Below are positions 758 to 46,411 of a DNA stretch of 47,605 bases, one piece after another; positions within the stretch are counted from its first letter, which is position 1; the number at the start of each line of letters is the position of its first letter. This DNA comes from a virus: the IMG/VR virus record IMGVR_UViG_3300035670_000352, positions 1 through 47,605 of that record; one strand, given 5' to 3'. The notes under the pieces were generated by a model. It saw nothing but the letters and a program-made list of their open reading frames with translations. It searched no databases and was not told where the DNA came from. The translations under genes and the position numbers were made by a program.

Positions 758-1600
758 ATGTTGAGACATCTAAAAGACTTTAAAAACTTTTCTTTATTTG
801 AAAATGTAAAGGTGGAAAAAATAGACCCCGCCTCGTATAAGATGGAAACTGTTACTGAGCTTCCCTATATGAGTTACATCAAGGAAAATCGTAATAAGTT
901 TTTAAAGAAATTAATAAAGATATCTGAGGAGCTTGGTATAAAGCCACAATGGCTGTTACACACTATATTTCACGAGAGCAGATTCGATTCCAAATATAAA
1001 GATGAGATGTCAGGTCAAGTCGGCCTTATATCTTTTATTCCCTCTGTGCTAAAGAATTTTATTAATCCAGATACAGGAAAAAATTATTCATCAAATGACG
1101 TTTTAGAAATGAGTAACGTCGATCAATTAGATCTAATTAGAGCTTTTTATAAAACATGGATAAGCGAAATGAATCTTAAAGGGGAGTTATCTCCAGGTGA
1201 TTTTGCATCTATAACTTTTTATCCCGAAACAATTAGGAAAGATTGGAAATGGGAATTCCCATCCTATGTAGTTGACAAGAATATAGAAACATTTAAAAGT
1301 TTTCCTTCCGATGGAGGTAAATCCAAGAAGGATTACTACGAGTATATAGATCAGATTTTTAATAGTGATGAAGAACAAGATGACGATAACAATTACATTC
1401 TTGGTAACTTCTCTGGAGCTTTCGCAGACACACAATCATACAGATCTAAAAAGCCTTTAGAATATTACAGAGGCTTGTTAGATTCAATAGAAGATCCATA
1501 TCTAAATCAGGATATACAACAACAGGATTTAGAAAACACCGAAAAAAATAAACAGTCTAACGTTAACACCGTTCCGCTGGGAATAAATGCTGTAAAATGA
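758..1600 (+). CDS. Lytic transglycosylase-like protein with candidate capsid-targeting N-terminus
   Basis: Residues about 55-120 look like an SLT/goose-lysozyme type muramidase domain: GIKPQWLLHTIFHESRF, with E73 in the HESRF motif as the candidate catalytic Glu, then a GQVGLISF segment like the glycine-rich part of lytic transglycosylases. The C-terminal third is acidic and low complexity. The N-terminus (LKDF, then SLFEN at 12-16) resembles the T4 capsid-targeting sequence that the prohead protease cuts after [LI]-x-E, so the enzyme may be packaged in the head and injected. An ATG at 754 is in another frame; ATG 758 opens this frame 10 bases after the previous stop. It overlaps the next gene by 4 bases. 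Enzyme family moderately sure, packaging inferred. Confidence 0.6.
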   Translation: MLRHLKDFKNFSLFENVKVEKIDPASYKMETVTELPYMSYIKENRNKFLKKLIKISEELGIKPQWLLHTIFHESRFDSKYKDEMSGQVGLISFIPSVLKNFINPDTGKNYSSNDVLEMSNVDQLDLIRAFYKTWISEMNLKGELSPGDFASITFYPETIRKDWKWEFPSYVVDKNIETFKSFPSDGGKSKKDYYEYIDQIFNSDEEQDDDNNYILGNFSGAFADTQSYRSKKPLEYYRGLLDSIEDPYLNQDIQQQDLENTEKNKQSNVNTVPLGINAVK

Positions 1601-1878
1601 AAATAAAAAAACTAAAAGATTTCGCTATAAAAGAAAATTTAGAATATAGTGGAGAAGACGTAACAAAAATGCCAGTCATAGGTAAAGTTATTACTAAAGC
1701 TATAGGTCCTTTTGAAGAAGCAGAATATGACGTGGTTGAAATAATAGAAGACCCAAACGGTCGAGAAATTTACGTATGTAATAAATGGTACAAAGAATAC
1801 AAAAGAATTCCACAGTTAATACATTCAGAGCTTGTTAAAGAATATATTCCAGTAGCCAAATTCGGAAACTTTTATTAG
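1597..1878 (+). CDS. Small protein of unknown function with candidate capsid-targeting N-terminus
   Basis: I do not recognise the family of this 93-residue protein. It starts inside the stop of the previous gene (ATGA overlap), so the two are probably translated together. The first 14 residues (LKDFAIKEN) match the pattern of T4 internal protein leaders (MKTYQEFIAEA): basic/aromatic start, then I-K-E followed by N, a site of the [LI]-x-E type used by the T4 prohead protease. The rest is a compact mixed domain with alternating hydrophobic segments (YDVVEII, EIYVCNKWYKEY). An injected internal head protein is a reasonable guess, not a demonstrated function. Confidence 0.6.
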   Translation: MKIKKLKDFAIKENLEYSGEDVTKMPVIGKVITKAIGPFEEAEYDVVEIIEDPNGREIYVCNKWYKEYKRIPQLIHSELVKEYIPVAKFGNFY

Positions 1879-1986
1879 CGTAGTTATATAATAATAGAAC
1901 TAGAGGTTTCTAGTCACTTCCCGGTCAACAAACCGTAGAGCTTTCAGAAATGGACGTGAAGGAAGGGGCCAAATAAAATAATCTTT
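1879..1986 (+). ncRNA. Possible structured leader RNA, 108 bases, unidentified
   Basis: This gene-free stretch can fold: ACTAGA (1899-1904) pairs with TCTAGT (1909-1914) over a GGTT loop; CGGT (1922-1925) pairs with ACCG (1932-1935) over a 6-base loop; CTTCC (1917-1921) can pair with GGAAG (1961-1965), enclosing the second hairpin. It is notably richer in G+C than other gaps here. It ends in an A-rich ribosome entry tract before the gene at 1987, so it is most likely a 5' leader. The start resembles a preQ1-I stem, but the pairing needed for that class is absent. Not assigned to any RNA family. Confidence 0.3.
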
Positions 1987-2802
1987 ATGTATTATTCAAC
2001 GCCAAGCGTGAATGTGGGGGGTTGTACCGCACACATCACAAGAAACAGAAATAGATCTAAGATCTATGGAGATTCCGTCTATCTCAAAGACGGGGAAAAT
2101 TTCGAGATTGAATTATTCAATCCAACAACAGCAAGGGTCCTTGCGAAGATCAATCTAAACGGTAAGAGTATTTCCGAATCTGGTATTATATTAAGACCCG
2201 GGGAAAGAGTTTATCTAGAAAGATTTATAGACACAAATAACAAGTTTCTTTTCGAAACTTATGAAGTCGATAAATCCAACGAGGCTCTTAACGCTATAAT
2301 TGATAATGGTATGTTAGAGGTTTCTTTCTATAAAGAATCATTACCCCAGACCAACTATACAGGTAGTGGTTACTTTAAAGGATCTTCTCCTTATAATCCA
2401 TCAATTACTATTGGTAGCGGTTCTACTGGAATTTATTATGGTGGATACACCTCTGATGTATTTACATCTTACTGTTCAGATGTAAACTTCTCTTTAGGCG
2501 GGTCTACTATAAACAATTTATTTACTACTACAAGTATGACAAATGATTCAGTAAAAGGGTCTAATGCTAGTAATAGTTTGGAAACTGGGAGAGTTGAAAT
2601 GGGTGAATCTAGTAATCAAGAATTTAGAAGTGTTTCTGCAAATTTTATGGATATAGCAGAAACAACTATTAAATATAGAATATTACCTGAATCGCAAAAA
2701 CCACTAGAGTCTTCTTCAATTAGAAACTACTGCACAGATTGCGGGACTAGAATGAAAAAGCAAACTTGGAAATTCTGTCCTAATTGCGGATCTAAGATCT
2801 AA
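1987..2802 (+). CDS. Unknown protein with C-terminal zinc ribbon
   Basis: The 271-residue protein has two parts. The N-terminal ~115 residues form a beta-rich domain (YLKDGENFEIELFNPTT, then GIILRPGERVYLERF and FLFETYEVD), a layout I have seen in hypothetical proteins of large phages and algal viruses. A Gly/Ser/Thr/Asn-rich low-complexity middle follows, then a zinc ribbon at the end: YCTDCGTRM and FCPNCGSKI supply two CxxC pairs. Role unknown; a virion-associated or nucleic-acid-contacting protein is possible. The ATG at 1987 follows AAATAAAATAATCTT, the initiation context typical of this genome. A bidirectional terminator lies just downstream. Confidence 0.65.
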   Translation: MYYSTPSVNVGGCTAHITRNRNRSKIYGDSVYLKDGENFEIELFNPTTARVLAKINLNGKSISESGIILRPGERVYLERFIDTNNKFLFETYEVDKSNEALNAIIDNGMLEVSFYKESLPQTNYTGSGYFKGSSPYNPSITIGSGSTGIYYGGYTSDVFTSYCSDVNFSLGGSTINNLFTTTSMTNDSVKGSNASNSLETGRVEMGESSNQEFRSVSANFMDIAETTIKYRILPESQKPLESSSIRNYCTDCGTRMKKQTWKFCPNCGSKI

Positions 2803-2817
2803 ACCTTACCTCACAAA

Positions 2818-2841
2818 AAACCCAGGAGAGATCCTGGGTTT
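2818..2841. terminator. Bidirectional rho-independent terminator
   Basis: AAACCCAGGA (2818-2827), loop GAGA, then TCCTGGGTTT (2832-2841): a perfect 10-bp stem between two convergent genes. On the minus strand it is followed by a run of six T, making a strong terminator for the gene starting at 3662; on the plus strand a weaker T-rich tail (GTAGTTTT) follows. Confidence 0.85.
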
Positions 2842-2849
2842 GTAGTTTT

Positions 2850-3662
2850 CTATAGATATCTTTCCCAATCTTGAGCCATTTCAGCTTGAGAGATTTCTGA
2901 ATCTGTATAGGGTCTAATATTTTTAAGCGGGGTTCCTTGATAAGCCATATAAGCATCTTTAGGAACTGGTATTTGATATCCCGGGGAGACGTTAGCATTT
3001 CCTCCATATCCTGCAGTTGTAGGAGTAGTTGATATTTTAGGCTGATCCTTTGGACCAAACATCCAGTCATAAGATTTTTTTGCAAATTTAGCCTCCTGTG
3101 TAATCCCTCTTACAGATTTGGTTAATTCTTTAACTCTAGCAGGATTAGATGCTAGTGTTGTTAATTTTGATCCCCCTTTCATTACAAAGTTCTTAAGGGA
3201 GCCTATCATTTTTCCTATAAATGGACCTATTCCAGCAAATTTAGTCATAAACTTAGAGCTTTTTAAGAAGGCCACTATTTTAGGAAAGAATTTGGCAACC
3301 AAATTTATAAGAGGCTTTAATATGGAAGCTCCTATTGCTTTACCTTTTCCTAAAGCTTTAACTAAAAGTGTTCCGCCAGCTCCAATATATTGACCGAAAA
3401 GTGGAATAAGACCTATTGCACATAGTCCAGCTAATAGATATTCACCTTGCTTAGCATAAGAAACTAAATTTATCCCTTCTGCTACTGATCCTACCCCAGG
3501 AATAAGGGCTGCAAAATCTAGAACAGTATTATACCAGGCCTCCATTAATGCTGGATCCTCGGAACTAAGATATTCTAGAGATTCATTAATTTGCTCATTA
3601 GTAAAAAATATAGGGGATTCATTTTCGAATAAATAGTCCTCTAAAGAAAGAATGTTATTCAT
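2850..3662 (-). CDS. Hydrophobic pretoxin-like protein with candidate capsid-targeting N-terminus
   Basis: 270 residues on the strand opposite almost everything else. Residues 1-14 end in YLFEN, a [LI]-x-E-N site like the T4 capsid-targeting leader. Residues about 48-100 read D-FAALIPGVGS-EGINLVSYAKQGEYLLAGLC-IPLFGQYIGAGG, the helical-hairpin pattern found ahead of toxin domains in polymorphic toxins (pretoxin-type) and in some phage proteins. A hydrophobic, Lys-rich stretch (about 100-170) could enter membranes; the C-terminal ~80 residues are polar and Pro/Tyr-rich. It has its own upstream GATATATAC box and its own terminator, so it is an independent unit. I infer a packaged, injected membrane-active or effector protein; no catalytic toxin domain is visible. 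Confidence 0.6.
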   Translation of the reverse strand: MNNILSLEDYLFENESPIFFTNEQINESLEYLSSEDPALMEAWYNTVLDFAALIPGVGSVAEGINLVSYAKQGEYLLAGLCAIGLIPLFGQYIGAGGTLLVKALGKGKAIGASILKPLINLVAKFFPKIVAFLKSSKFMTKFAGIGPFIGKMIGSLKNFVMKGGSKLTTLASNPARVKELTKSVRGITQEAKFAKKSYDWMFGPKDQPKISTTPTTAGYGGNANVSPGYQIPVPKDAYMAYQGTPLKNIRPYTDSEISQAEMAQDWERYL

Positions 3663-3674
3663 ACTTTTTTTATT

Positions 3675-17544: not shown

Positions 17545-20500
17545 ATGGCAAAACAAGTCAAACTTGATTTATCCCAATTTAAAGCATCTGGTGTTTACAC
17601 TTTAGAATTTGATGCTAGTGAGAACATTATTATTAACCCTTCCACGATCAGATTGGTCGTAGGTTATTCTAGCGTTGGACCTTTCAATACACCAGTTTAT
17701 TGTCCGGATATTACGACTTTCCAATCAGTATTTGGAGGAATAGAAAGAACTATGGAAAAGAAAGGATCTTTCTTTCATAGATCTTGCTTAGTGTGTCTAC
17801 AAAGTGGACCTATATTTGCTCTAAACTTAAGACTTTTAAATAATACTGTAGACGAAAACGGTGATCCTGATTATGCTGCAGGTGCCGATGTAGCTAGATA
17901 TAGAGCTTTCTCTATGGATACAGAGGAACAAAACGGTGCTAATGCTACTGGGGGATATTCAGATCCTTTAACAAAACAGGATAAATTATTGTCTTCTTAC
18001 TACAACAAAGAGAAGTTTTGGTTCCCAGATACAACTTATTTGTTAGCTACAGAGGACACTTCAGGAGCTCAACCAGATTCAAGAAAACTATTTAGCCTTG
18101 TTAATCTTGGACAAAATCCTGTAAGTATCATAGTAAGAAAATCGTTGGATTCTAGATTTCCTTTAAGAGGATTCGACATTACAGCTAGAGAATATTTTGG
18201 ACCTGATAACGTTCCTTCATATATGAATCAATATGATTATCTTTCGGATTGGTTTATTGATGTGATTGCAATAAATGGAAATTGGACTGATTATCAAGCT
18301 CTTTCTAATGATCCAGTTTATAGCCAGTACTTTACTTCTAAAGGATTTATAAAGTCACAAATAGATAATTTCTTAGCTCTTGATGGTGTTAATATTGCAC
18401 TAACAGTAACAGGTACTATAATTCCTAACTTTACAGACCAAAACGGTACTTTAAGATACATCCAAACTCTAATCAACAATCAAACACCAACAACAGGTAT
18501 TTTCTGTGCTGTTAACGAAGAAGCTTTAGATGATCTAGTTGATAACTCTTCAGTATTCGACTTAGTTGGTCATCACTTGGTAGATGAAATAGGTTCGGAT
18601 GCAGACATTACATCAGTACCTAAGAATCTTAACTTCTTGTCATATAGTCAAAATCTATTTGCAGACTACACTTATTATAAGAACATTGACGGATCTACGG
18701 GAGGTACTGAGATAGAAGATAACCTTTCGCCATCTAATCCGGGAATGGACATACTACCAGAAACCGGAACTCTCCTTTCTGATACACTATATAATGCAAC
18801 TGGAGATGCTGGTATACCGACAACTCTTTGGGACACCTATAACTCTAGTGCAAGAGACGGAGGGGCTATTTATATAGACACATTATTTACATCTACTTCC
18901 CTACACGACGACCAAATAACAACATTAGACGACTTTGTCTCAGTTTCGAGTACAGCTCCTGCAGATAGATGGGTATTAGGTAAAGTAACTTCAAACTTAC
19001 CAACACCAGGATATCTTGGATTCTACGAAGGAGATTTAGTTAAATTAAGAATAGTAGAGGCAAAAACAATTACTAATTCAACTTTACCTGTCGGCGTTAG
19101 AACTCAGGTAAGATTGAGATTAAAGCATCCTCTCGTAGGATCTACTTCTTCAACAACTTATGTTGAACCTTACGAAATAACGAATAAGAGTACAGCTGCT
19201 GCCTATCAGATAGGTAATCCAGATTACTTCGATAATGATGACGTTTACTTCTCACCAGACATACCAGTAGGAACTGATTCTTACTTAGCTTACGAAAACT
19301 CAGCGATGTATAGAGACTGGGTTAAAGGAAACATCGGTGATGGTGATATTGACTGGAAAGACGATACTGGATCCTTACTTCAATATTTAAAATTTGAAGT
19401 TAACGTAGATAGAGACGGATACAATATCCTAGTTTGTAGAGCGTATGCAGATGATACGTTCGCAACTCCGGAAGCTATCTCAACTTGGGATACAACTTAC
19501 ATTAGCTCACTTCCGATTGGAACGAACCAAACCACAGGGGAAAGCTTTAACATAGTTTCAACTGCAGGAAACATAAGCGATTATGTTGACATTATTACAC
19601 AGTTACAGCCTAATGTTATTGAGTTATCTACCGCTGTTGCTACATCTTCTGGTATAAAAGTTGGGGATCTGCTTGTATCTACAGATCTTCAGACTTATGA
19701 TAACCCTTTAACTGAAAATCTTCAATCTAGATTAACAAGAGTACTGGAGGTTAAAACGGTAGCTTCTGCAACATCTCCTGGAGTTTACACTGTACAAGTT
19801 AAAACAGAAAGACCAATTAAGCTTTACCCTGGTGTGACAACAAGAGTTTGGAAATTTAAAAACATCCAAGAGTTTGTTAAGTCATTTAACTTTACGTATC
19901 TTCCTGGCGCAGACATTAAAGCAGCTTCTATGCCTAATGGAACAGACACAAGAATGAATGACATCTTAGATGTTCTTACGAATACTAATCTTGCTAGAAC
20001 ATTAGCAGATACTGACGTAATTACATTCCGATACATTGTTGATACATTTGACGGAGGTATACAGCCAAACTGTAAATTCCAGCTTACTAGACTTGCTAAA
20101 AACAGACAAAAATGTTTAGCAATTTGTAACCTACCTTCGATGAAGAAGTTTGCAGAATCCATAGATCCTAGATTTACTTCTGCACCAACTGCAACTGATC
20201 CAGCTCCACTTTTACAAGCTAGATTCATCGCAGATGGAGGTAACTTAAGTCTTAATCCGTCATTTACTTTCTCTTTACCAGATGAAGATCTAGGTGCTAA
20301 ATTCTCAGGATTCTTTGCGCCATTCTTAACAATCAGAGAAAACAATAAGAATTTAGATGTTCCACCTTCAGCTTATGTTTCTAACAATTTTATACGTAAG
20401 TTTATTACAGGCGAACCTTATTCAATCGTAGCTGGTCTTAAGAGAGGTATTATCTCTGCTAGTAACTTAGTAGGATTGGAATATGATTTCGACTTACAAG

Positions 20501-20990: not shown

Positions 20991-21563
20991 ATGGCAGGAT
21001 TACCACATTATACAAGTTCTAAAGCTTCAGTTAACAAGTTCGAACCTGTTTTCCTCAACCAGTTCGAGGTTATTATTACACCTCCGGCTGCTATTCCAGT
21101 TCAGGCTGGAAATCCAGGAAGTTCTAATATATTATTAGAGCAGGTAACAAACGTTACTGGATTACAGGTAGACCAGAACCCTTCTGAGGTTACTCAACAG
21201 TATAAATTTGCTAAAAGATATTATTCTGGTGCAGCTCCACAAAGAACCGGATTAGATGTTGGTATGGGATTTGAAATCAACCTTAACGAGAATAACTCTA
21301 TGTATGTTTTTAAAACACTTCGTCAGTGGTCGGATTTAATCTACAATCCATTAACAGGAGCTATGGGGCTTAAAAAAGATTACACTGGAAATATATTAAT
21401 CAATGTTTTCAACAAGCAAGGAGATATTTTCAGAAAAATAAATCTTAGAGATTGTTTTCCGATGTCAGCTATACCAGAAATGGCGCTTAACTACACCCAA
21501 ACATCTATTTATAAAATAGATATTACTTGGGCGGTTGATTATTTCGAAGACGTGTTTATATAA
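20991..21563 (+). CDS. 19: Tail tube protein, gp19-like, copy 1
   Basis: 190-residue tube subunit (T4 gp19 is 163). Family features: an N-terminal NQFEVIITPPA strand, QYKFAKRYYSGA, the FEINLNENNSMYVFKTLRQWSDLIYNPLTGAMG signature (here split as FEINLNENN and LRQWSDLIYNPLTGAMG), and C-terminal KIDITWAVDYFEDVF. Rings of it form the inner tail tube through which DNA passes. A second complete copy follows after 12 bases. Confidence 0.92.
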   Translation: MAGLPHYTSSKASVNKFEPVFLNQFEVIITPPAAIPVQAGNPGSSNILLEQVTNVTGLQVDQNPSEVTQQYKFAKRYYSGAAPQRTGLDVGMGFEINLNENNSMYVFKTLRQWSDLIYNPLTGAMGLKKDYTGNILINVFNKQGDIFRKINLRDCFPMSAIPEMALNYTQTSIYKIDITWAVDYFEDVFI

Positions 21564-21575
21564 AAATTAAAAAAA

Positions 21576-22154
21576 ATGGCAGGATTACCACATTTTACAT
21601 CAGCAAAAGCGGCAGTACAATTGTACGAACCGGTATATCTTAACCAATTTGAGGTTATTATACAGCCTCCTGCTGGGGTCGTAAACGAGCAAGGAAACGG
21701 AGGTAGAACTCTTTTAGTAGAAAATGTTTTATCTGTTGCTGGTTTAAGTGTTGATAAAAACCCACAACCTGCAGAACAGAGATACAAATTTACCAAAAGA
21801 AGATACGCTGGAGGTATGGTAGATGATACAGGTGTTAAGGTGAGAATAGAATTTGAAACAAACCTTAACGATAATAACAGCAACTATGTTTTTAAAACAT
21901 TACGTCAGTGGTCAGATTTAGTTTATAATCCTCTAACTGGTGCTATGGGAATAAAATCTACATATGCTGGAGGAACTTATATCCTTATCTCAATATTTAA
22001 CAAACAAGGAGACGTATTTAGGAGAATTAAATTGCTAAATTGCTTCCCTGTTGATCAGATTAAATCTTTAGATCTCGATTACAGCAACGGTACAACCCCT
22101 TACAAAATAGCTTTATCATTTAGAGCGGATTATTTCGAAGACGTTTTTAATTAA
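21576..22154 (+). CDS. 19: Tail tube protein, gp19-like, copy 2
   Basis: 192 residues, clearly paralogous to the upstream copy: both start MAGLPH-TS-KA, share NQFEVII-PPA, LRQWSDL-YNPLTGAMG and end in DYFEDVF. Differences are spread over the whole protein, so this is an old duplication with both copies kept intact. One may form the bulk tube and the other a specialised end ring, or they may alternate. A strong terminator follows. Confidence 0.9.
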   Translation: MAGLPHFTSAKAAVQLYEPVYLNQFEVIIQPPAGVVNEQGNGGRTLLVENVLSVAGLSVDKNPQPAEQRYKFTKRRYAGGMVDDTGVKVRIEFETNLNDNNSNYVFKTLRQWSDLVYNPLTGAMGIKSTYAGGTYILISIFNKQGDVFRRIKLLNCFPVDQIKSLDLDYSNGTTPYKIALSFRADYFEDVFN

Positions 22155-31114: not shown

Positions 31115-33433
31115 ATGGAAAAAAATATTAATCCAGAGATCAATAGATTAAATATGGAGACTTCTAGAAACGCAGCAGATTCTCTTAGAGGATGGGCTGG
31201 ACTAGGATCAGAAAAAAAACCTGTTGCATCTACTTTCCTTGGCGGCTCAACAGCTCAAATGCTTAAAGAATCGCAAAACTTTGATATTTCAGGACAGCCT
31301 AAAAACAGCGTTGTTTTTAGTTTTGGTCTAGTTAATACGGTTTCTGCTTTAAAAAATTCTTCTTTAGGTGATCTCCCGGCAGGAAAAATACTTTTAGAAA
31401 AATACGAGCACTTATTATTAGGAAAAGGTATTTCTGAAGCTTTTGTATTGGAAGGCTTTTTAAATGATCTTAAGTCATTTTCTTGGGAAAATTCAGTAGT
31501 TCCTGTTTTAGAAAATTTAGAAAGAATCTTTGAAAATAGAAGAAGAGAAATAGAGGTTGTTAAAACATACGAATCTATTAAGAATGCACCAGGAAGAGAA
31601 CTTTTTTCCGATGCTACTAAACAAATGAAATCGTGGTTGCTTGCAGAAAATAAATCAAGTGATACCCTAATCCACGGCCTTAAAAGCTTTGGATTTAATC
31701 CTATGGTTAGAAACTTGGTTAGCTTTCTATCTCTTTATGAAAATGATAACAGCGGTAAATTTCATGTAGGTTTTGATAACAATGTTTGTAAAATAGATAA
31801 TTTATATTCACCGATATCAGTTAACGAAAATGAGACATTATTTTACTCCTCTGGTAAATTTTTAAAGATCGATCACGAATCTGGAATTATCCAAGAATGT
31901 AACATGGATGAAGTACCAGCTGAACTTGCCGATAAGGCTCAAATAGTTAGCGATAGGGACGTAAAAATCGACAACAATAAGATTTCATTAAATATTGGAA
32001 ACAATAAGGTAGAGATAGTATTTACGAACGAATCTAAGGAAGTTTACTTCGACGGTAAAAGAATAAACGAAGAGGATCTTCCCGTTGCAGTTAGTGTTAG
32101 CACTAATAACCTTTTAGAAAGCTCTAACCATAAGATCAGTAAAGCAGTTTTTGTAGCTAAATCTGCTGAAGATATTGTTGATATCGATTTTGGTAAGAAG
32201 ATAAAATCTAAAGTATACGAGAACGTAGAAGTTAATTTATTTAAAACTGAATCAGGAATTTATGTTCAAACCGTTAATCCAGCAATGAGATTAAATAAAA
32301 TCTACGAAGCAAATGCAACACAGGCTATTAAAATTGTTAAAGATTTTATTAAATATGACATCTCTGAATCATTAACAGAATTCTTAGAAGGAGAAGAAGC
32401 TTTCCTAAGCGTAATGAAAAACGATAAGAATGAAATAGTTAAAAACGTAGAGATCTTAGAAAATCAGCTTAGAAAATTAGATATAGCTAAGAGAGAAAAT
32501 CCTTTACTTGCTAACTCTGAAGAACTTATCACATTAGAAGAAGGGATTCATAATGAAATTTCGTCTCTACAAGATAGATGGAACCAAATCAATCTTGAAA
32601 TTTCCAGATTCGAAAACAGAGCAAAAGAGGTTCCTTCAGTTAATGAAGATCTAGGTTATCCGATTGATACTGAGGTTAGAATCAAAAGAAATGGAAATAA
32701 AGGTAGAGTGATTGGAGTAGATGGAAGCTCTAAAACTTATACTATTCTTTTTAAGGAAGGTAAAACTGGAGAATATTTCTTTTCGGATGTTGAAGATCTA
32801 GAGGACGAAATTGACAGATATGACATTAAAGCTCCAGATCTTGATTTAGAATACACTAATGAATCTAACCAGAACTTTGCAAATGCTCCAGGTAATAGAG
32901 GGGGATCACACAAGGATTCTAGAATAGAGGCTCTTTCTAAAAAACACATGGCACATGCACCTGATAAAAAAACAGGTTCTTCTGCTAAGTTTATAAACAA
33001 CGAGAAAGGCACAATGGCAGGTTTACCTAAGAGTGGTAAATCAGCGCCTTTAACAGGAAGAGGGGTTAAATCTAAATCTTCTAACATGGCTGATCTTCCT
33101 AACAAGGGAAAAGGTGGAAGCGGTAAAAAGTTTATAGATAATTTAGAAAACCTAGATCTTGCTAAAGCACCTAGTGCTTCCCTAAAAGGATCTGCTAAAT
33201 TTATTCAAGACCTTAAGAATATGAATTTAGCTACTCTTAAAGAGAGTCAAAAAAATTCACACATCGAAAAAGCACCTAAAGGTAAATCAGAAAAGTCTAA
33301 GAAATTTATCGAGGATGAGGATGATTTTAACTTTGCAGATGCTCACGGAAACAGTAAAAAGAATGGAAAAAGATTTGCAGAAAACGATAAAGTAGCAAAC
33401 CTTTCCTCTGCACCGAAGACAAAAAAAAAGTAA
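31115..33433 (+). CDS. Large repeat protein of unknown function, probably extended by -1 frameshift
   Basis: 772 residues. An N-terminal part (1-200) is helical (RNAADSLRGWAGLGS, ILLEKYEHLLLGKGISEAF); about 200-400 is beta-rich; about 430-510 is helical; DTEVRIKRNGNKGRVIGVDG at about 525-545 looks like a small KOW/SH3-type barrel. Residues from about 585 to the end carry 7-8 copies of a degenerate ~23-residue unit, N-[FLM]-A-x-[AL]-P, a Lys/Gly/Ser-rich stretch, then K-[KR]-F-I. It ends in nine A's and TAA, and the -1 frame continues with good coding sequence. It precedes the late sigma gene. A capsid-interior or scaffold-like role is possible; not recognised. Confidence 0.7.
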   Translation: MEKNINPEINRLNMETSRNAADSLRGWAGLGSEKKPVASTFLGGSTAQMLKESQNFDISGQPKNSVVFSFGLVNTVSALKNSSLGDLPAGKILLEKYEHLLLGKGISEAFVLEGFLNDLKSFSWENSVVPVLENLERIFENRRREIEVVKTYESIKNAPGRELFSDATKQMKSWLLAENKSSDTLIHGLKSFGFNPMVRNLVSFLSLYENDNSGKFHVGFDNNVCKIDNLYSPISVNENETLFYSSGKFLKIDHESGIIQECNMDEVPAELADKAQIVSDRDVKIDNNKISLNIGNNKVEIVFTNESKEVYFDGKRINEEDLPVAVSVSTNNLLESSNHKISKAVFVAKSAEDIVDIDFGKKIKSKVYENVEVNLFKTESGIYVQTVNPAMRLNKIYEANATQAIKIVKDFIKYDISESLTEFLEGEEAFLSVMKNDKNEIVKNVEILENQLRKLDIAKRENPLLANSEELITLEEGIHNEISSLQDRWNQINLEISRFENRAKEVPSVNEDLGYPIDTEVRIKRNGNKGRVIGVDGSSKTYTILFKEGKTGEYFFSDVEDLEDEIDRYDIKAPDLDLEYTNESNQNFANAPGNRGGSHKDSRIEALSKKHMAHAPDKKTGSSAKFINNEKGTMAGLPKSGKSAPLTGRGVKSKSSNMADLPNKGKGGSGKKFIDNLENLDLAKAPSASLKGSAKFIQDLKNMNLATLKESQKNSHIEKAPKGKSEKSKKFIEDEDDFNFADAHGNSKKNGKRFAENDKVANLSSAPKTKKK
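32868..33430 (+). repeat. Degenerate ~23-residue protein repeats (A-x-A-P ... K-K-F-I)
   Basis: Units begin NFANAPGN, HMAHAPDK, TMAGLPKS, NMADLPNK, DLAKAPSA, IEKAPKGK, NFADAHGN and ANLSSAPK, most followed by [SG]-x-K-[KR]-F-I and acidic residues. Spacing is 22-24 residues. DNA copies have diverged, so selection acts on the protein motif. Confidence 0.7.
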
Positions 33434-34522: not shown

Positions 34523-35115
34523 TCCAACCTTTTAGACAAAAATTTAATGATTATAAACTTTCAGTGTCCGGATTATCTTCACTTCCTGAGGAATCTTTTA
34601 TGCACTGGGTAAAAAATTATATCAATAAGGATTCCCAGTTTAATCCTTTAAATTTTTTACAAGGAAAAGTTTACTCCTTTGCTTACAATGATAAGCTAGA
34701 ACCTGGTAAAAAATTCATAAATAAAAGACCAGTGATATTTTTTACCGGATATGATAACTACGAAAAGAAAAATCTATTTAATGGATTAGATCTAGTTTTA
34801 ATATCCCCAATTTTTAGATTAGCATTTTTCGAAAGAGTACAAAGTGTATTTCAGGATCAGATAGAAAGAAACTTAAAAAAAGAAGAAATGGGAGAGGGCA
34901 AGGATCAAGCTCCCCTTAGAACTGAATATCAAATAATGGAAATAATTCTTAAAGGAATCCCCTATAAACATGCGTATAGATCATGGGATTTGAAAAAAGT
35001 TAAGGATGTTATGGAAATTCCTTTTGAAGATTGGACTAGAATAGTATATCTGGATACCCGATCAATTGAAGGGACCCAGTTAAATGAGATATATAATAAA
35101 AATTCACAAGTCTAA
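34519..35115 (+). CDS. Unknown protein between head completion and portal genes
   Basis: 198 residues, overlapping gene 4 (ATGA) and ending on the first base of the portal ATG. A beta-rich first half (GKVYSFAYNDKLEPG, RPVIFFTGYDN, NGLDLVLISPIFRLAFFERV) and a helical second half. The R-P-V-I-F ... G-x-D-L pattern recalls small proteins next to head genes in T4-like phages, but I cannot name it. Virion assembly role inferred from context. Confidence 0.6.
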   Translation: MIQPFRQKFNDYKLSVSGLSSLPEESFMHWVKNYINKDSQFNPLNFLQGKVYSFAYNDKLEPGKKFINKRPVIFFTGYDNYEKKNLFNGLDLVLISPIFRLAFFERVQSVFQDQIERNLKKEEMGEGKDQAPLRTEYQIMEIILKGIPYKHAYRSWDLKKVKDVMEIPFEDWTRIVYLDTRSIEGTQLNEIYNKNSQV

Positions 35116-36728
35116 TGGCTGGATTTACCGACGATAAAAAATCATTCTTTAGCTCTATTATAGATAGCATAAAGAAAGTAGGTAGTTTTGGGATGGCCTA
35201 TGAAGATCTTGTTGTAAAGAATTCTCAAGCAGTAGGTATAACAGAAGCTCAATTTCTGCAAAAGGGAGGAATTAAAGATGAATCATTCCTATTCGGTTTA
35301 AGGAGAGCAGACACTACTACTAAACAGTATATAGCTTATTTTGATAAGGACTACAAGAACAAAAGACATTATTTACAAGGATTTGCACAGAATCCAGAAA
35401 TTGAGTTCATATTAGACACAATATGTGATGAGTCTATAGTTTATGATGAGAAAAACTTTTGGGCTTACTTCTCATTTATGCAGCACGATGACGTTGATGA
35501 GGAAACATACGACAAAGTTCAAAAGAGATACAAAGAAATTTATAACTTATTTGGATTCAATCAGGATATTTCCGCCTGGCATTTATTTAGAAAGTTTTTA
35601 GTAGATGGTATAATAGCATTTGAAATAGTTTTTGATAAGAAGGGAAAAAATATAGTCGGATTTAAGGAATTAGACCCTTGGTCTTTAATACCAACGGTAG
35701 AAGCACAGCCGGATGGTTCTTTTATTGATATATGGATACAGTATCCTGATAATCCATCACTGACAAGAAAGCTTTATGATTCGCAGATAATTTATATAAG
35801 TTATGCTAAAGGGGGAGGAACATCCTCACGAGTTAGCTATTGTGAAAGAATGATTCGCTCTTTTAATCTCTTAAGAATAATGGAGCACACAAGAATTATT
35901 TGGAACGTGATGAACTCGTCATACAGAATGGCGATGACAGTTCCTATTGGCACTAGATCGCCTCAAAAAGCAAAACAAACGCTAGGAGAGTTAATGTCTA
36001 TATACAAGGAAGATATAAGACTTAATACAGACAGTGGGGAATTAAGCATAGATGGTAGGCCGAAGATTCAATTCTTTAAGAATTATTTAATGCCTTCATC
36101 TCCTAATGGTACACCAGATATACAACCACTCCCTGGCGGCGGTGATGCCACAGCATTCTCTGACACCACAGTTCTTAAATACTTTGCTAATAAATTAAGG
36201 ATGGATTCTAAAATTCCTGCTACTAGGTTTGGTAGAGAAGAATCAGGATCAGAAGGAACTATAACTTTTACAGCAGAGGGACTAGATCAAGAGGAAGTAA
36301 GGTTTGGTAAATTTATAAATAGATTAAGATCAATTTACCAAGAGATATTAATGAAGCCACTTTGGGTTCAATTCTGTTTAGATTTTCCACACCTGAAAAA
36401 GGACTATATAATAAAATCTGAATTTGGTCTAGACTATGTAAAAGAAAACATGTTTAGAGAAGCCAAAGAAATGGAGGTTTTAACAGCAAGAAAAGATCAG
36501 GTAATTAAGATATCTGCCCTTATGAATTCTGCAGGAAAAAAATACTTCAGCATGGATTTCTTGGTTGATAGATGGCTAGGAGTAAAAGGACAAGATTTAA
36601 TTAGTAATAAAAAAGCTAAAGAGAAAGCTGCAGAAGCTAAAAAGAAAGCTGCAGAAGCTGAAGCAGGAGCTACTGGAGCAGAAGGAGCTACTGGAGCAGA
36701 AGGAGGCGGAGACGAATTTACACTATAA
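35115..36728 (+). CDS. 20: Portal protein, gp20-like, copy 1
   Basis: 537 residues (T4 gp20 524). Portal family core: IEFILDTICDESIVYDEKNFW, WHLFRKFLVDGIIAFEIVFD, GFKELDPWSLIPTVE, QIIYISYAKGGG, RSFNLLRIMEHTRIIWNVMNSSYRMAMTVPIG (quoted here as RIIWNVMNSSYRMAMTVPIG), TLGELMSIYKEDIRL and DGRPKIQFFKNYLMP, then QEILMKPLWVQFCLDFP. Forms the twelve-fold ring at the packaging vertex. The C-terminus ends in an unusual collagen-like EAGATGAEGATGAEGGGDE tail. A second complete portal gene follows. Confidence 0.92.
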   Translation: MAGFTDDKKSFFSSIIDSIKKVGSFGMAYEDLVVKNSQAVGITEAQFLQKGGIKDESFLFGLRRADTTTKQYIAYFDKDYKNKRHYLQGFAQNPEIEFILDTICDESIVYDEKNFWAYFSFMQHDDVDEETYDKVQKRYKEIYNLFGFNQDISAWHLFRKFLVDGIIAFEIVFDKKGKNIVGFKELDPWSLIPTVEAQPDGSFIDIWIQYPDNPSLTRKLYDSQIIYISYAKGGGTSSRVSYCERMIRSFNLLRIMEHTRIIWNVMNSSYRMAMTVPIGTRSPQKAKQTLGELMSIYKEDIRLNTDSGELSIDGRPKIQFFKNYLMPSSPNGTPDIQPLPGGGDATAFSDTTVLKYFANKLRMDSKIPATRFGREESGSEGTITFTAEGLDQEEVRFGKFINRLRSIYQEILMKPLWVQFCLDFPHLKKDYIIKSEFGLDYVKENMFREAKEMEVLTARKDQVIKISALMNSAGKKYFSMDFLVDRWLGVKGQDLISNKKAKEKAAEAKKKAAEAEAGATGAEGATGAEGGGDEFTL

Positions 36729-36734: not shown

Positions 36735-38375
36735 ATGGCTGGATTTTTAGATAATTTAGGAAAAATAAACCCCAATGTCTCTAGGATATTAAAAACTATT
36801 AGTGGTCTAGGGTCTTTTGGGATGGAATATAAAGACATGGTTATCCAAGACTCTATGGCAATCGGTGTATCCGAAGCCAATATGAGGGAAAGATTCGGAT
36901 TTAGTGATACTGACGAAGATTTTATCTATAGCATAGCAGCCCAGGACACATCTAATAGAAAATACATAGCATACTTCGACAAAGACTATCCATTCAAAAG
37001 GGATTTTCTTAGAACTTTTGCTTTAAATGCAGAGATAGAATACATCTTAGACACTATATGTGACGAAGCAATAGTTTATGACGAAAAGAATTTCTTTTGT
37101 CATCCAGCCTTAATGAACATGGATCTTAAAGATGATGTAATAAAAGCTCTAAGAAATAATTTTAGAAAACTATATGTATTACATAACTTTGCCAACGGGC
37201 TTACTGGGTGGCAATATTTTAGACAACTAATAGTAGAAGGATTTCTTGCCTTTGAAATAATATACTCTAATGACGGAAAAGAGATAGTAGGCTTTAAAGA
37301 ATTAGATGCAGTTAGTTTAACTCCCGCTGTGGAGAAGAAACCAGACGGGACTAGAGAAACTATCTGGTGGCAATATTACGGTGAAACTGTAAGACAAAGA
37401 AAACTTCTTGACGCACAAGTTATCTACATATCTTATGCTAAAGCAAATGTAGTTTCTAGGGTTTCCTATACTGAAAGACTTATAAGATCTTACAACCTAC
37501 TAAAAATCATGGAGCACTCCCGTATAATATGGAACGTGATGAATGCTCAGTATAGGATTAAAATGACGGTTCCTATCGGAAGCAAAGCTCCGCAAAAAGC
37601 TAAAGAAACATTAGGGGAACTTATGTCTGTCTATAAAGAAGATATTAAGCTTGATACCACCTCAGGAGAGCTATCAATAAACGGTAGACCTGATATACAG
37701 TTTTATAAAAACTATTTATTTCCTCAACAGGGAGGTGAATCTGTTAAAATAGAAACATTAAATGCACAGGGTCCAAATCTAAATATTATGGACTCGGTGG
37801 TTTATTTCTATAATAAATTAAGACAAGATTCTAAAATTCCTTATAATAGATTCTCATCTAGATTTGGGGTTGGATCTAACAATGTATTTAAAACTGCTGC
37901 AGATGGAGCAGAAAGAGACGAAGTTAGATTTGCTAAGTTTATAACACGACTCAGGTCTATATTTCAGGAGATCGTTGTTAAACCCCTATGGATTCAAATG
38001 TGTCTAGATTTTCCAGATCTTAAAAATGATTCGGAATTTAGAAGTCAGATAGGTGTTAAATTTGAGAGCGATAACATATTCGGGGAATCTAGAGAGATAG
38101 AGCAATTAATAAAGAAAATAGATTTTATAACATCCATGGGGGAAATCAAAGAAACTGTAAACGAAGAAGAAGTACAGTTCTTTGACCAGGATTTTATGAT
38201 AGAGAGATGGCTAGATTTATCATACGATGATATACAATTGAATAAGTCGTATGTAAAAAAAGCTGAAGAAGCTGGAAAATCTGCAGCAACTGGAGCAACT
38301 GGAGGAGCAGGAGCAGAAGCATCAGGAGGAGCAGAAGCTGCAACAGGAGGAGCAGAAGCTGCAACGGGAGCTTAA
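36735..38375 (+). CDS. 20: Portal protein, gp20-like, copy 2
   Basis: 546 residues, aligned with copy 1 throughout: both start MAGF, share SFGM-Y-D-V, KYIAYFDKDY, IEYILDTICDEAIVYDEKNF, GFKELDAVSLTPAVE, VIYISYAKANVVSRVSYTERLIRSYNLL (seen as VIYISYAKA and RLIRSYNLL), RIIWNVMNAQYRIKMTVPIG and KPLWIQMCLDFP. No frameshift or internal stop, so both copies look functional. The C-terminus is an Ala/Gly/Thr-rich tail (AATGATGGAGAEASGG and repeats). Which copy forms the ring, or whether they mix, cannot be read from sequence. Confidence 0.92.
   Translation: MAGFLDNLGKINPNVSRILKTISGLGSFGMEYKDMVIQDSMAIGVSEANMRERFGFSDTDEDFIYSIAAQDTSNRKYIAYFDKDYPFKRDFLRTFALNAEIEYILDTICDEAIVYDEKNFFCHPALMNMDLKDDVIKALRNNFRKLYVLHNFANGLTGWQYFRQLIVEGFLAFEIIYSNDGKEIVGFKELDAVSLTPAVEKKPDGTRETIWWQYYGETVRQRKLLDAQVIYISYAKANVVSRVSYTERLIRSYNLLKIMEHSRIIWNVMNAQYRIKMTVPIGSKAPQKAKETLGELMSVYKEDIKLDTTSGELSINGRPDIQFYKNYLFPQQGGESVKIETLNAQGPNLNIMDSVVYFYNKLRQDSKIPYNRFSSRFGVGSNNVFKTAADGAERDEVRFAKFITRLRSIFQEIVVKPLWIQMCLDFPDLKNDSEFRSQIGVKFESDNIFGESREIEQLIKKIDFITSMGEIKETVNEEEVQFFDQDFMIERWLDLSYDDIQLNKSYVKKAEEAGKSAATGATGGAGAEASGGAEAATGGAEAATGA

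Positions 38376-43444: not shown

Positions 43445-46411
<2,967 letters not shown>

What the first reader, a model, noticed from the sequence alone, without database searches (positions are those of the whole stretch)
758..3662. Three neighbouring proteins share a T4-like capsid-targeting leader ending in [L/I]-x-E-N
The proteins starting at 758, 1597 and 3662 (minus strand) begin with short peptides ending SLFEN (E15), AIKEN (E13) and YLFEN (E13), preceded by LKDF, LKDF and LEDY. T4 internal proteins use MKTYQEFIAEA as a leader cut after I-A-E by the gp21 protease, whose sites are [LI]-x-E. The bodies are unrelated (a muramidase-like enzyme, a small unknown, a hydrophobic pretoxin-like protein). 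This suggests a set of cargo proteins packed into the prohead, trimmed and injected with DNA. The leader could also serve to find more cargo genes in this genome.
Basis: partly seen in the sequence, partly recalled or inferred. Interest (0 to 1): 0.8.

Follow-up and report, generated by a model that had tools for sequence, protein, structure and literature searches.

The report
Head-targeting leaders on phage cargo proteins
A group of large freshwater bacterial viruses appears to mark many unrelated proteins with a short removable front tag that sends them into the virus head during assembly, as phage T4 does with a few proteins, and the head protease of these viruses carries a long tandem row of the same short core motif.

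Summary
The three leaders are real. The window is a 47.6-kb fragment of a T4-like myovirus. A leader profile trained on five related records, homologues of the three proteins left out, ranks exactly these three first among 51 window genes (22.0, 19.0, 16.2 bits; next 7.9; 0 of 200 shuffled windows reach the third). The glutamate before the predicted cut is kept in 18 of 18 distinct 758-type proteins; the Asn after it is not. In the window and five relatives 77 proteins of 48 body families reach 10 bits; in four further records 8 to 44 do, against 0.5 to 2.5 expected. None of 206 genes in the replication/tail/packaging block of four relatives has it. Relatives encode an S77 prohead protease; 44 of 44 distinct protease ORFs examined carry 6 to 16 copies of a core like [FY]xx[FY][LI]xE, also the core of T4's MKTYQEFIAE. 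Best reading: a T4-style capsid-targeting system with a large cargo set, whose leaders resemble units of the protease's own array. Packaging, cutting and injection are inferred; I found no virion data. New variant of a known kind.

The parts
758..802 (+). leader of the first protein, residues 1-15 (MLRHLKDFKNFSLFE), predicted cut after E15
   Evidence: profile 22.0 bits with homologues left out of training; E15, F11 and H4 invariant in an 18-row alignment, 17 rows distinct
803..1597 (+). body of the first protein, lytic-transglycosylase-like
   Evidence: PHROGs peptidase/transglycosylase/hub families down to 5e-10, Pfam SLT only at 0.11; weak fold matches headed by lytic transglycosylases, none with E below 0.4, model pLDDT 55.6
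1597..1635 (+). leader of the second protein, residues 1-13 (MKIKKLKDFAIKE), predicted cut after E13; its ATG overlaps the stop codon of the first gene
   Evidence: profile 16.2 bits with homologues left out; overlap read from the sequence
1636..1875 (+). body of the second protein, 80 residues, function unknown
   Evidence: no Pfam or PHROGs match better than 0.004
3624..3662 (-). leader of the third protein, residues 1-13 (MNNILSLEDYLFE), predicted cut after E13
   Evidence: profile 19.0 bits with homologues left out; 22 distinct homologues listed
2853..3623 (-). body of the third protein, with long hydrophobic stretches, function unknown
   Evidence: no PHROGs match and no Pfam match better than 0.3; hydrophobicity read from the sequence

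Best explanation
The three N-termini are capsid-targeting leaders that work like T4's. A short N-terminal stretch with two aromatic or hydrophobic residues three apart (F-x-x-F in the 758 protein, L-x-x-F and L-x-x-Y in the others) docks the new protein onto the prohead core. After shell assembly the phage's S77 prohead protease cuts after [LIVM]-x-E; the leader is lost and the body stays in the head with the DNA, probably to be ejected into the host. In this lineage the system is large (6 to 44 leader genes per record at 10 bits in the nine relatives, several of them fragments), and protease and core scaffold are one polypeptide with a tandem array of about 14-residue units, each holding a core like [FY]xx[FY][LI]xE, so that cargo leaders would imitate one unit of the array. 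Shown: the leader, its conservation, its spread over unrelated bodies, its place in the genome, the protease and the array in relatives. Inferred: docking, cutting, packaging, ejection, and the role of the array.
For: Homologue-free profile ranks the three genes 1-3 of 51, 0 of 200 shuffled windows as good. Enrichment in five relatives, 0 of 200 shuffles each, and none of the strict pattern in seven control genomes. Records outside the training set: 44/851, 13/205, 16/214 and 8/150 genes at 10 bits against 2.5, 0.7, 1.1 and 0.5 expected. 77 proteins in 48 body families, 71 of 77 with E at the predicted site (the profile favours E). Leader genes 0 of 206 in the tail/replication block against 68 of 676 elsewhere. 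S77 protease in relatives, arrays in 44 of 44 distinct ORFs. Capsid protein is a gp23 homologue with [LI]xE|S sites near its N-terminus. T4 ipII, ipIII (MKTYQEFIAE|A) and ipI (MKTFKEFTSTTTPVSTITE|A, with a spacer) have the same two-part design; in IPIII residues 4 and 7 serve targeting and 8 and 10 processing (PMC9026906, passages).
Against: No virion proteomics, no mature N-terminus. No protease in the window. The window alone is not significant. The profile does not pick out T4's internal proteins (0 of 251 T4 genes at 10 bits), so descent from T4's sequence is not shown. In distant records many front halves lack [LIV]xE within 12 residues (present in 13/41, 6/20, 9/19, 2/8; only the third clearly above shuffles). 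Two of the three window leaders have L, not an aromatic, at the first key position. Scored with the whole leader profile the array is the top protein in only 3 of 9 array records. In the 1597 and 3662 families 4 of 14 and 5 of 23 rows do not align E at the window's site.
Confidence: 0.82

Rival explanations
1. The likeness of the three N-termini is a coincidence of short, AT-rich, Lys/Phe/Glu-rich N-termini.
For: On the window alone the patterns are not significant; loose patterns have many chance hits.
Against: Homologue-free ranking of the three genes and four records outside the training set; absence from the tail/replication block; conservation of E15 in 18 of 18 distinct homologues while P2 varies.
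Confidence: 0.01
2. The leaders are amphipathic helices that anchor proteins at the host membrane or another infection-time structure, and the [LI]xE is incidental.
For: The front half is hydrophobic-basic, and in the distant records often stands without a clear [LIV]xE.
Against: In four close relatives 59-71% of front-half genes have [LIV]xE within 12 residues against 17-20% of other genes, although the front-half profile was trained on whole leaders; leader genes also lie beside the capsid and protease genes; the E survives indels in the spacer.
Confidence: 0.08
3. The leaders mark core or scaffold proteins that help build the head and are destroyed or stay structural, not cargo injected into the cell.
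For: Some leader genes sit directly beside protease and capsid genes, and T4 core proteins are cut by the same protease (PMC9026906, passage).
Against: Many leader bodies lie far from the head genes, and several look like enzymes: CHAP, MoxR-type AAA+, DUF2201 metallopeptidase, endolysin- and transglycosylase-like.
Confidence: 0.2
4. The protease array is an ordinary coiled-coil scaffold, and its likeness to the leader core is accidental.
For: A helix with hydrophobic residues at i, i+3, i+4 and Glu at i+6 is a common pattern (general knowledge); the whole leader profile puts the array first in only 3 of 9 records.
Against: The core occurs at 2.2e-4 per position outside arrays, about 0.003 for a 14-residue unit in any phase (ignores helix composition), yet 44 of 44 protease ORFs keep it, always with E.
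Confidence: 0.4

Closest known systems
T4 capsid targeting sequence of internal proteins IPI, IPII, IPIII with protease gp21
   Same: N-terminal leader of 10-20 residues, two aromatic/hydrophobic residues three apart, then [LI]xE as cutting motif; unrelated bodies; S77 protease; gp23-type capsid protein
   Different: Many more leader genes (6-44 per record against three T4 internal proteins found with the motif here), different leader sequence (not found in T4 by the profile), protease fused to an array of cores; P1' mostly S, N, G where T4's three have A
Giant-phage head maturation (SPN3US gp245, phiKZ gp175)
   Same: Prohead protease cutting after x-x-E in several head proteins, N-terminal propeptides, ejected proteins (PMC10052503, passages)
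   Different: SPN3US motif is A-X-E, most propeptides are 111-254 residues, 14 sites in nine proteins, and the authors report about 80% of the remaining head proteins uncut; no shared short leader is described in the passages I saw
Tenacibaculum phage PTm1 prohead core scaffolding protein and protease (ORF-300)
   Same: S77 protease in one ORF with a scaffold-like region holding several [LI]xE sites
   Different: No array of the YxxYLAE core; the strict leader is not enriched (1 of 275), though a shorter FxxF+[LI]xE pattern is (10 against about 4; 1 of 200 shuffles)
Phage PAU internal capsid proteins (gp142, gp154)
   Same: Many proteins with a short common leader ending in [LI]xE|[ASN]; two are annotated 'internal capsid protein'
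   Different: Other leader, MK[ST]x(2-5)L[YF]E in 18 of 299 ORFs and in none of T4, SPO1, PTm1, Lak-A2 or G005; separate short protease without array

Membership tests
T4-type capsid targeting sequence | processing motif [LI]xE shortly after the N-terminus | tested here: met
   L-F-E, I-K-E, L-F-E in the three window proteins; E kept in 18/18, 10/14 and 18/23 distinct proteins at the same column
T4-type capsid targeting sequence | two key targeting residues three apart (T4 Y4 and F7) | tested here: inconclusive
   strictly aromatic in 1 of 3 window proteins, L-x-x-[FY] in the other two; in the cohort F or Y at the first place in 62 of 77, F, Y or W at the second in 75 of 77, by a profile that favours them
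T4-type capsid targeting sequence | same leader on bodies that are not homologous | tested here: met
   48 body families by single linkage at E 1e-3
T4-type capsid targeting sequence | S77 prohead protease in the same phage | tested here: inconclusive
   not in the window; over cut-off in 5 of 20 related records and, through a protein search, in 58 viral loci; the window is a fragment
T4-type capsid targeting sequence | sequence homology to T4's leaders (same profile finds both) | tested here: not met
   0 of 251 T4 genes reach 10 bits. I therefore say it works like a CTS, not that it descends from T4's
T4-type capsid targeting sequence | leader directs packaging and is removed by the protease | not testable with these tools
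   needs virion proteomics and fusion experiments
Peptidase S77 (PF03420) | profile match over the curated cut-off | tested here: met
   35-40 bits against 27 in five relatives
Peptidase S77 (PF03420) | conserved catalytic regions | tested here: met
   G69 E70 D72 H73 P74 and S128-G133 invariant in 30 sequences; that these hold the catalytic His and Ser is recalled

The most novel reading that the evidence does not exclude
The prohead protease of this lineage is also the cargo receptor: its polypeptide carries an array of capsid-targeting cores, and each cargo leader is in effect one detached array unit that joins the same helical core and is cut at the same kind of site. Capsid targeting would then be scaffold mimicry, and the packaged protein set of uncultured phages of this kind, megaphages included, could be read from their N-termini.
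Probability: 0.4. Interest if true: 0.82.

Novelty: new variant of a known kind. Interest (0 to 1): 0.68.

Why it matters
In T4 this tag is known from a few internal proteins. Here dozens of unrelated proteins in one phage lineage, including a 597-kb record (G021), carry such a tag, and most of the larger bodies I scanned have no known family. The leader gives a sequence-only way to predict which phage proteins travel in the head and may enter the cell with the DNA, a class likely to hold counter-defence and takeover proteins (inference from T4's internal proteins). The array on the protease offers a concrete, testable model for how a capsid-targeting sequence is recognised, which the T4 passages I read do not give.

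Tried and rejected
Window-only statistics were too weak to decide. The first loose regex had several false positives and was replaced by the profile. Scored with the whole leader profile the array tops the list in only 3 of 9 array records (G022, G023, G024), so the array claim rests on the 7-residue core alone. AlphaFold models were of low confidence: protease fusion mean pLDDT 54.6 with the array drawn as one long helix (residues 271-432), mostly under 50; 758 protein 55.6. Its PDB search put lytic transglycosylases first, but with no E below 0.4. Pfam gave no match for 10 of 10 cargo or core proteins, and PHROGs none for 7 of 10. A Dda-like helicase in the cohort (G003_36986) is probably a chance hit, because the motif lies in an ordinary helicase N-terminus, and the capsid protein enters the cohort through an internal Met. 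A test of leader against array co-variation is not possible with one lineage. Ribosomal protein S21, tested to link these records to published lake phages, is in 2 of 10 records. Limits: block borders were set by me with the hits known, by synteny with window 3.7-47 kb, and G007 was left out of that pooled count; gene calls are longest non-overlapping ORFs, not curated genes; for G021-G024 homologues of the training proteins were not removed; one of six search patterns behind the 58 protease loci came from the array itself, which favours array-bearing hits, and seven end-truncated loci of the 58 were left out of the count.
Full report
What is there. The window is a 47,605-base virus record, probably a fragment, of a T4-like myovirus. 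By my reading of the ORFs it encodes UvsX-like, DnaB-like and gp46/47-like proteins, terminase, sheath and tubes; a thymidylate synthase (PHROGs 7e-24) and two portal homologues rest on searches. Three genes at its left edge begin MLRHLKDFKNFSLFE|N (758), MKIKKLKDFAIKE|N (1597) and MNNILSLEDYLFE|N (3662, minus strand). The coordinates given are right.

Is it more than chance? With the window alone one could not say: the strict two-part pattern fits 1 of 49 genes, reached by 48 of 200 shuffles. I therefore fetched relatives. Searches with the 758 and 3662 proteins gave 9 and 32 viral loci; five of the longer records behind them were taken whole. In all five the strict pattern is enriched: 9/260, 12/162, 12/211, 12/220 and 4/122 genes against means of 1.1, 0.7, 0.9, 1.0 and 0.4 in shuffled N-termini, 0 of 200 shuffles each. 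It is not enriched in SPO1, crAss001 (80 kb), T4, PAU, PTm1, MaF61 or Lak-A2. Looser patterns tell less: a short FxxF+[LI]xE pattern is not significant in G007 (23 of 200 shuffles), and the cutting motif alone is also enriched in T4, PAU, Lak-A2 and PTm1, not clearly in MaF61, SPO1 or crAss001.

A two-block profile with a spacer, trained without the genome under test, finds 12, 17, 20, 15 and 4 genes at 12 bits or more in the five relatives against 0.6, 0.5, 0.5, 0.5 and 0.3 expected, and in the window exactly the three claimed genes. Because homologues of the three were in that training set I retrained without them: they rank 1, 2 and 3 of 51 with 22.0, 19.0 and 16.2; the next gene has 7.9, and no shuffled window has a third-best score above 8.7 (0 of 200). 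In four records not used for training the profile finds 44/851 (G021, 597 kb), 13/205, 16/214 and 8/150 genes at 10 bits or more, against 2.5, 0.7, 1.1 and 0.5 expected; homologues of training proteins were not removed there.

Conservation. In the 758 family E15, F11 and H4 are invariant in the 18-row alignment (17 distinct rows), while P2 is F, N, T or L and P1' is N, S or G, and two sequences shorten the spacer but keep L-N-E|S. Codons of the conserved Phe, Leu and Asp vary synonymously among 14 sequences, so selection is on the protein. With all distinct homologues plus the window, E stands at the window's site in 18 of 18 (758), 10 of 14 (1597) and 18 of 23 (3662) rows. In the listing most of the exceptions keep an [LIVM]xE one or a few residues away; one (G007) has no clear site. 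The conserved thing is [LIVM]xE, not E-N.

Breadth. In the window and five relatives 77 proteins reach 10 bits: 3, 13, 20, 20, 15 and 6; 71 have E at the predicted site, but the profile favours that. Their bodies fall into 48 families by single-linkage BLAST; in 40 families at least one member has [LIVMFY]xE at the site. Two families are not plain cargo: the major capsid protein, matched inside its propeptide, and a Dda-like helicase that is probably a chance hit. Named domains among the rest include CHAP, MoxR-type AAA+ and DUF2201 metallopeptidase over their cut-offs, a second CHAP and NlpC/P60 below them, a nucleotidyltransferase-like match below cut-off, an endolysin-like protein and the transglycosylase-like 758 protein. 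Many large bodies have no match.

Place in the genome. Leader genes avoid the replication/tail/packaging block: 0 of 206 genes against 68 of 676 elsewhere in four records (Fisher p 1.3e-8; borders set by me after seeing the hits). In the window it is 0 of 46 after position 3663 and 3 of 5 before it. In the near relative G005 the syntenic place is the edge of a stretch where 12 of 57 genes reach 10 bits, so the window probably shows only the rim of such a region.

Protease and array. The PF03420 prohead protease is not in the window (no control genome rang there, but the same search rang in relatives). It is over the cut-off in 5 of 20 related records, in ORFs of 666-695 residues in four and of 413 residues cut by a run of N in the fifth. 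Next to it in G003 and G005 lies a major capsid protein (phmmer 7e-6 to T4 gp23) whose first 45 residues hold IIE|S and LNE|S. Behind the protease domain the ORF carries a tandem row of about 14-residue units such as SYSEYLAENLDKNI. The core [FY]xx[FYW][LIVM]xE occurs 13-15 times in the four intact proteases and 8 times in the interrupted one; among the proteins of the 13 records scanned only one other has it three times, and none more often. A search with this protein gave 58 loci; 51 had a usable ORF, 44 distinct, and all 44 have 6-15 cores by this pattern, 6-16 by a looser one that also catches a few sites outside the array; some of these proteins are about 42% identical to the query. AlphaFold draws the array as one long helix, at low confidence. 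With the whole leader profile the array is top-ranked in only 3 of 9 records; the likeness is confined to the core.

Comparison with T4. The T4 record gives ipII and ipIII as MKTYQEFIAE|A and ipI as MKTFKEFTSTTTPVSTITE|A (cut positions from the motif). In IPIII residues 4 and 7 direct targeting and 8 and 10 processing, and gp21 cuts after L/I-X-E (PMC9026906, passages). The design here is the same, and ipI shows that T4 too has a spacer. But the clade profile does not pick out T4's proteins (0 of 251 at 10 bits), so common descent is not shown. Genes chosen by the front half alone have [LIV]xE within 12 residues in 59-71% in four close relatives, against 17-20% of other genes, and in 4 of 8 in G007 (28 of 500 shuffles); in the distant records in 13/41, 6/20, 9/19 and 2/8 (16, 57, 0 and 157 of 500 shuffles). 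Some leaders there may be cut elsewhere, for example inside MKHLKxFE|N (reading), or not at all.

Wider. The capsid protein links the lineage to Lak megaphages, Tenacibaculum phages PTm1, PTm5 and pT24, PAU, Chryseobacterium phages MA9V-1 and MA9V-2, Flavobacterium phage MaF61 and large uncultured phages (31 records), so the host is probably a Bacteroidota bacterium (inference). PAU has 18 of 299 ORFs beginning MK[ST]x(2-5)L[YF]E, a start found in none of T4, SPO1, PTm1, Lak-A2 and G005; two of its proteins, gp142 and gp154, are annotated as internal capsid proteins. Lak-A2 has 42 of 554 genes with an N-terminal [LI]xE[NSGA] against 20 expected, with yet another leader type. The PAU and Lak-A2 proteases lack the array. 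Leader type thus differs between lineages.

Literature. Seven searches on capsid targeting, prohead protease, jumbo phages, PAU, Lak, Tenacibaculum phages, Bacteroidetes and T4-like phages, and protease-scaffold repeats listed no paper whose title or abstract start describes this leader cohort or the array. Only open-licence PubMed Central papers are held; I saw listings, and passages of four papers (PMC3012670, PMC9026906, PMC10052503, PMC9723584). [quoted passage not shown] S21 is in 2 of my 10 records, so they may be related.

Verdict. A real, conserved, lineage-wide leader of T4 capsid-targeting design, with a large candidate cargo set and a protease-borne array of the same core. Packaging, cutting and ejection await virion data.

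Noticed in passing
window 35115-36728 and 36735-38375: Two tandem portal homologues, 48-49% identical to each other; both copies are kept in G001, G002, G003, G005 and G007, while Lak-A2, G021, G022, G023, PAU, PTm1 and MaF61 show one match each and G024 none.
   Followed up: partly
window 31115-33433, C-terminal 170 residues: A 772-residue protein ends in a repeated motif like [NHD][FML]A[DNHK][AL]P followed by G/K/S-rich sequence and KFI; the region is conserved in five relatives. Unexplained.
   Followed up: partly
window 20991-21563 and 21576-22154: Two neighbouring tail-tube-like proteins look like paralogues (by eye).
   Followed up: no
G001 99140-102254 and G002 68645-71186: Two neighbouring leader-bearing genes whose families match a DUF2201 metallopeptidase (tested in G002_68645) and a MoxR-type AAA+ ATPase (tested in the relative G002_209888); possibly a co-packaged pair.
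   Followed up: partly
Lak-A2 (MK250019), many loci: Excess of N-terminal [LI]xE[NSGA] sites (42 of 554 genes against 20 expected), often as LIE|SLFDD or LYE|SIM: a possible separate leader cohort in megaphages.
   Followed up: partly
Sphingomonas phage PAU (JQ362498), many loci: 18 of 299 ORFs begin MK[ST]x(2-5)L[YF]E, another leader type; gp142 and gp154 are annotated internal capsid proteins.
   Followed up: partly
G001 18962-19114 and G007 105196-105348: Ribosomal protein S21 genes in 2 of 10 records of this lineage.
   Followed up: no
G005 45214-46047: A leader-bearing protein (MDKKILSFEEF...) whose body is almost only Asp and Glu; function unknown.
   Followed up: no
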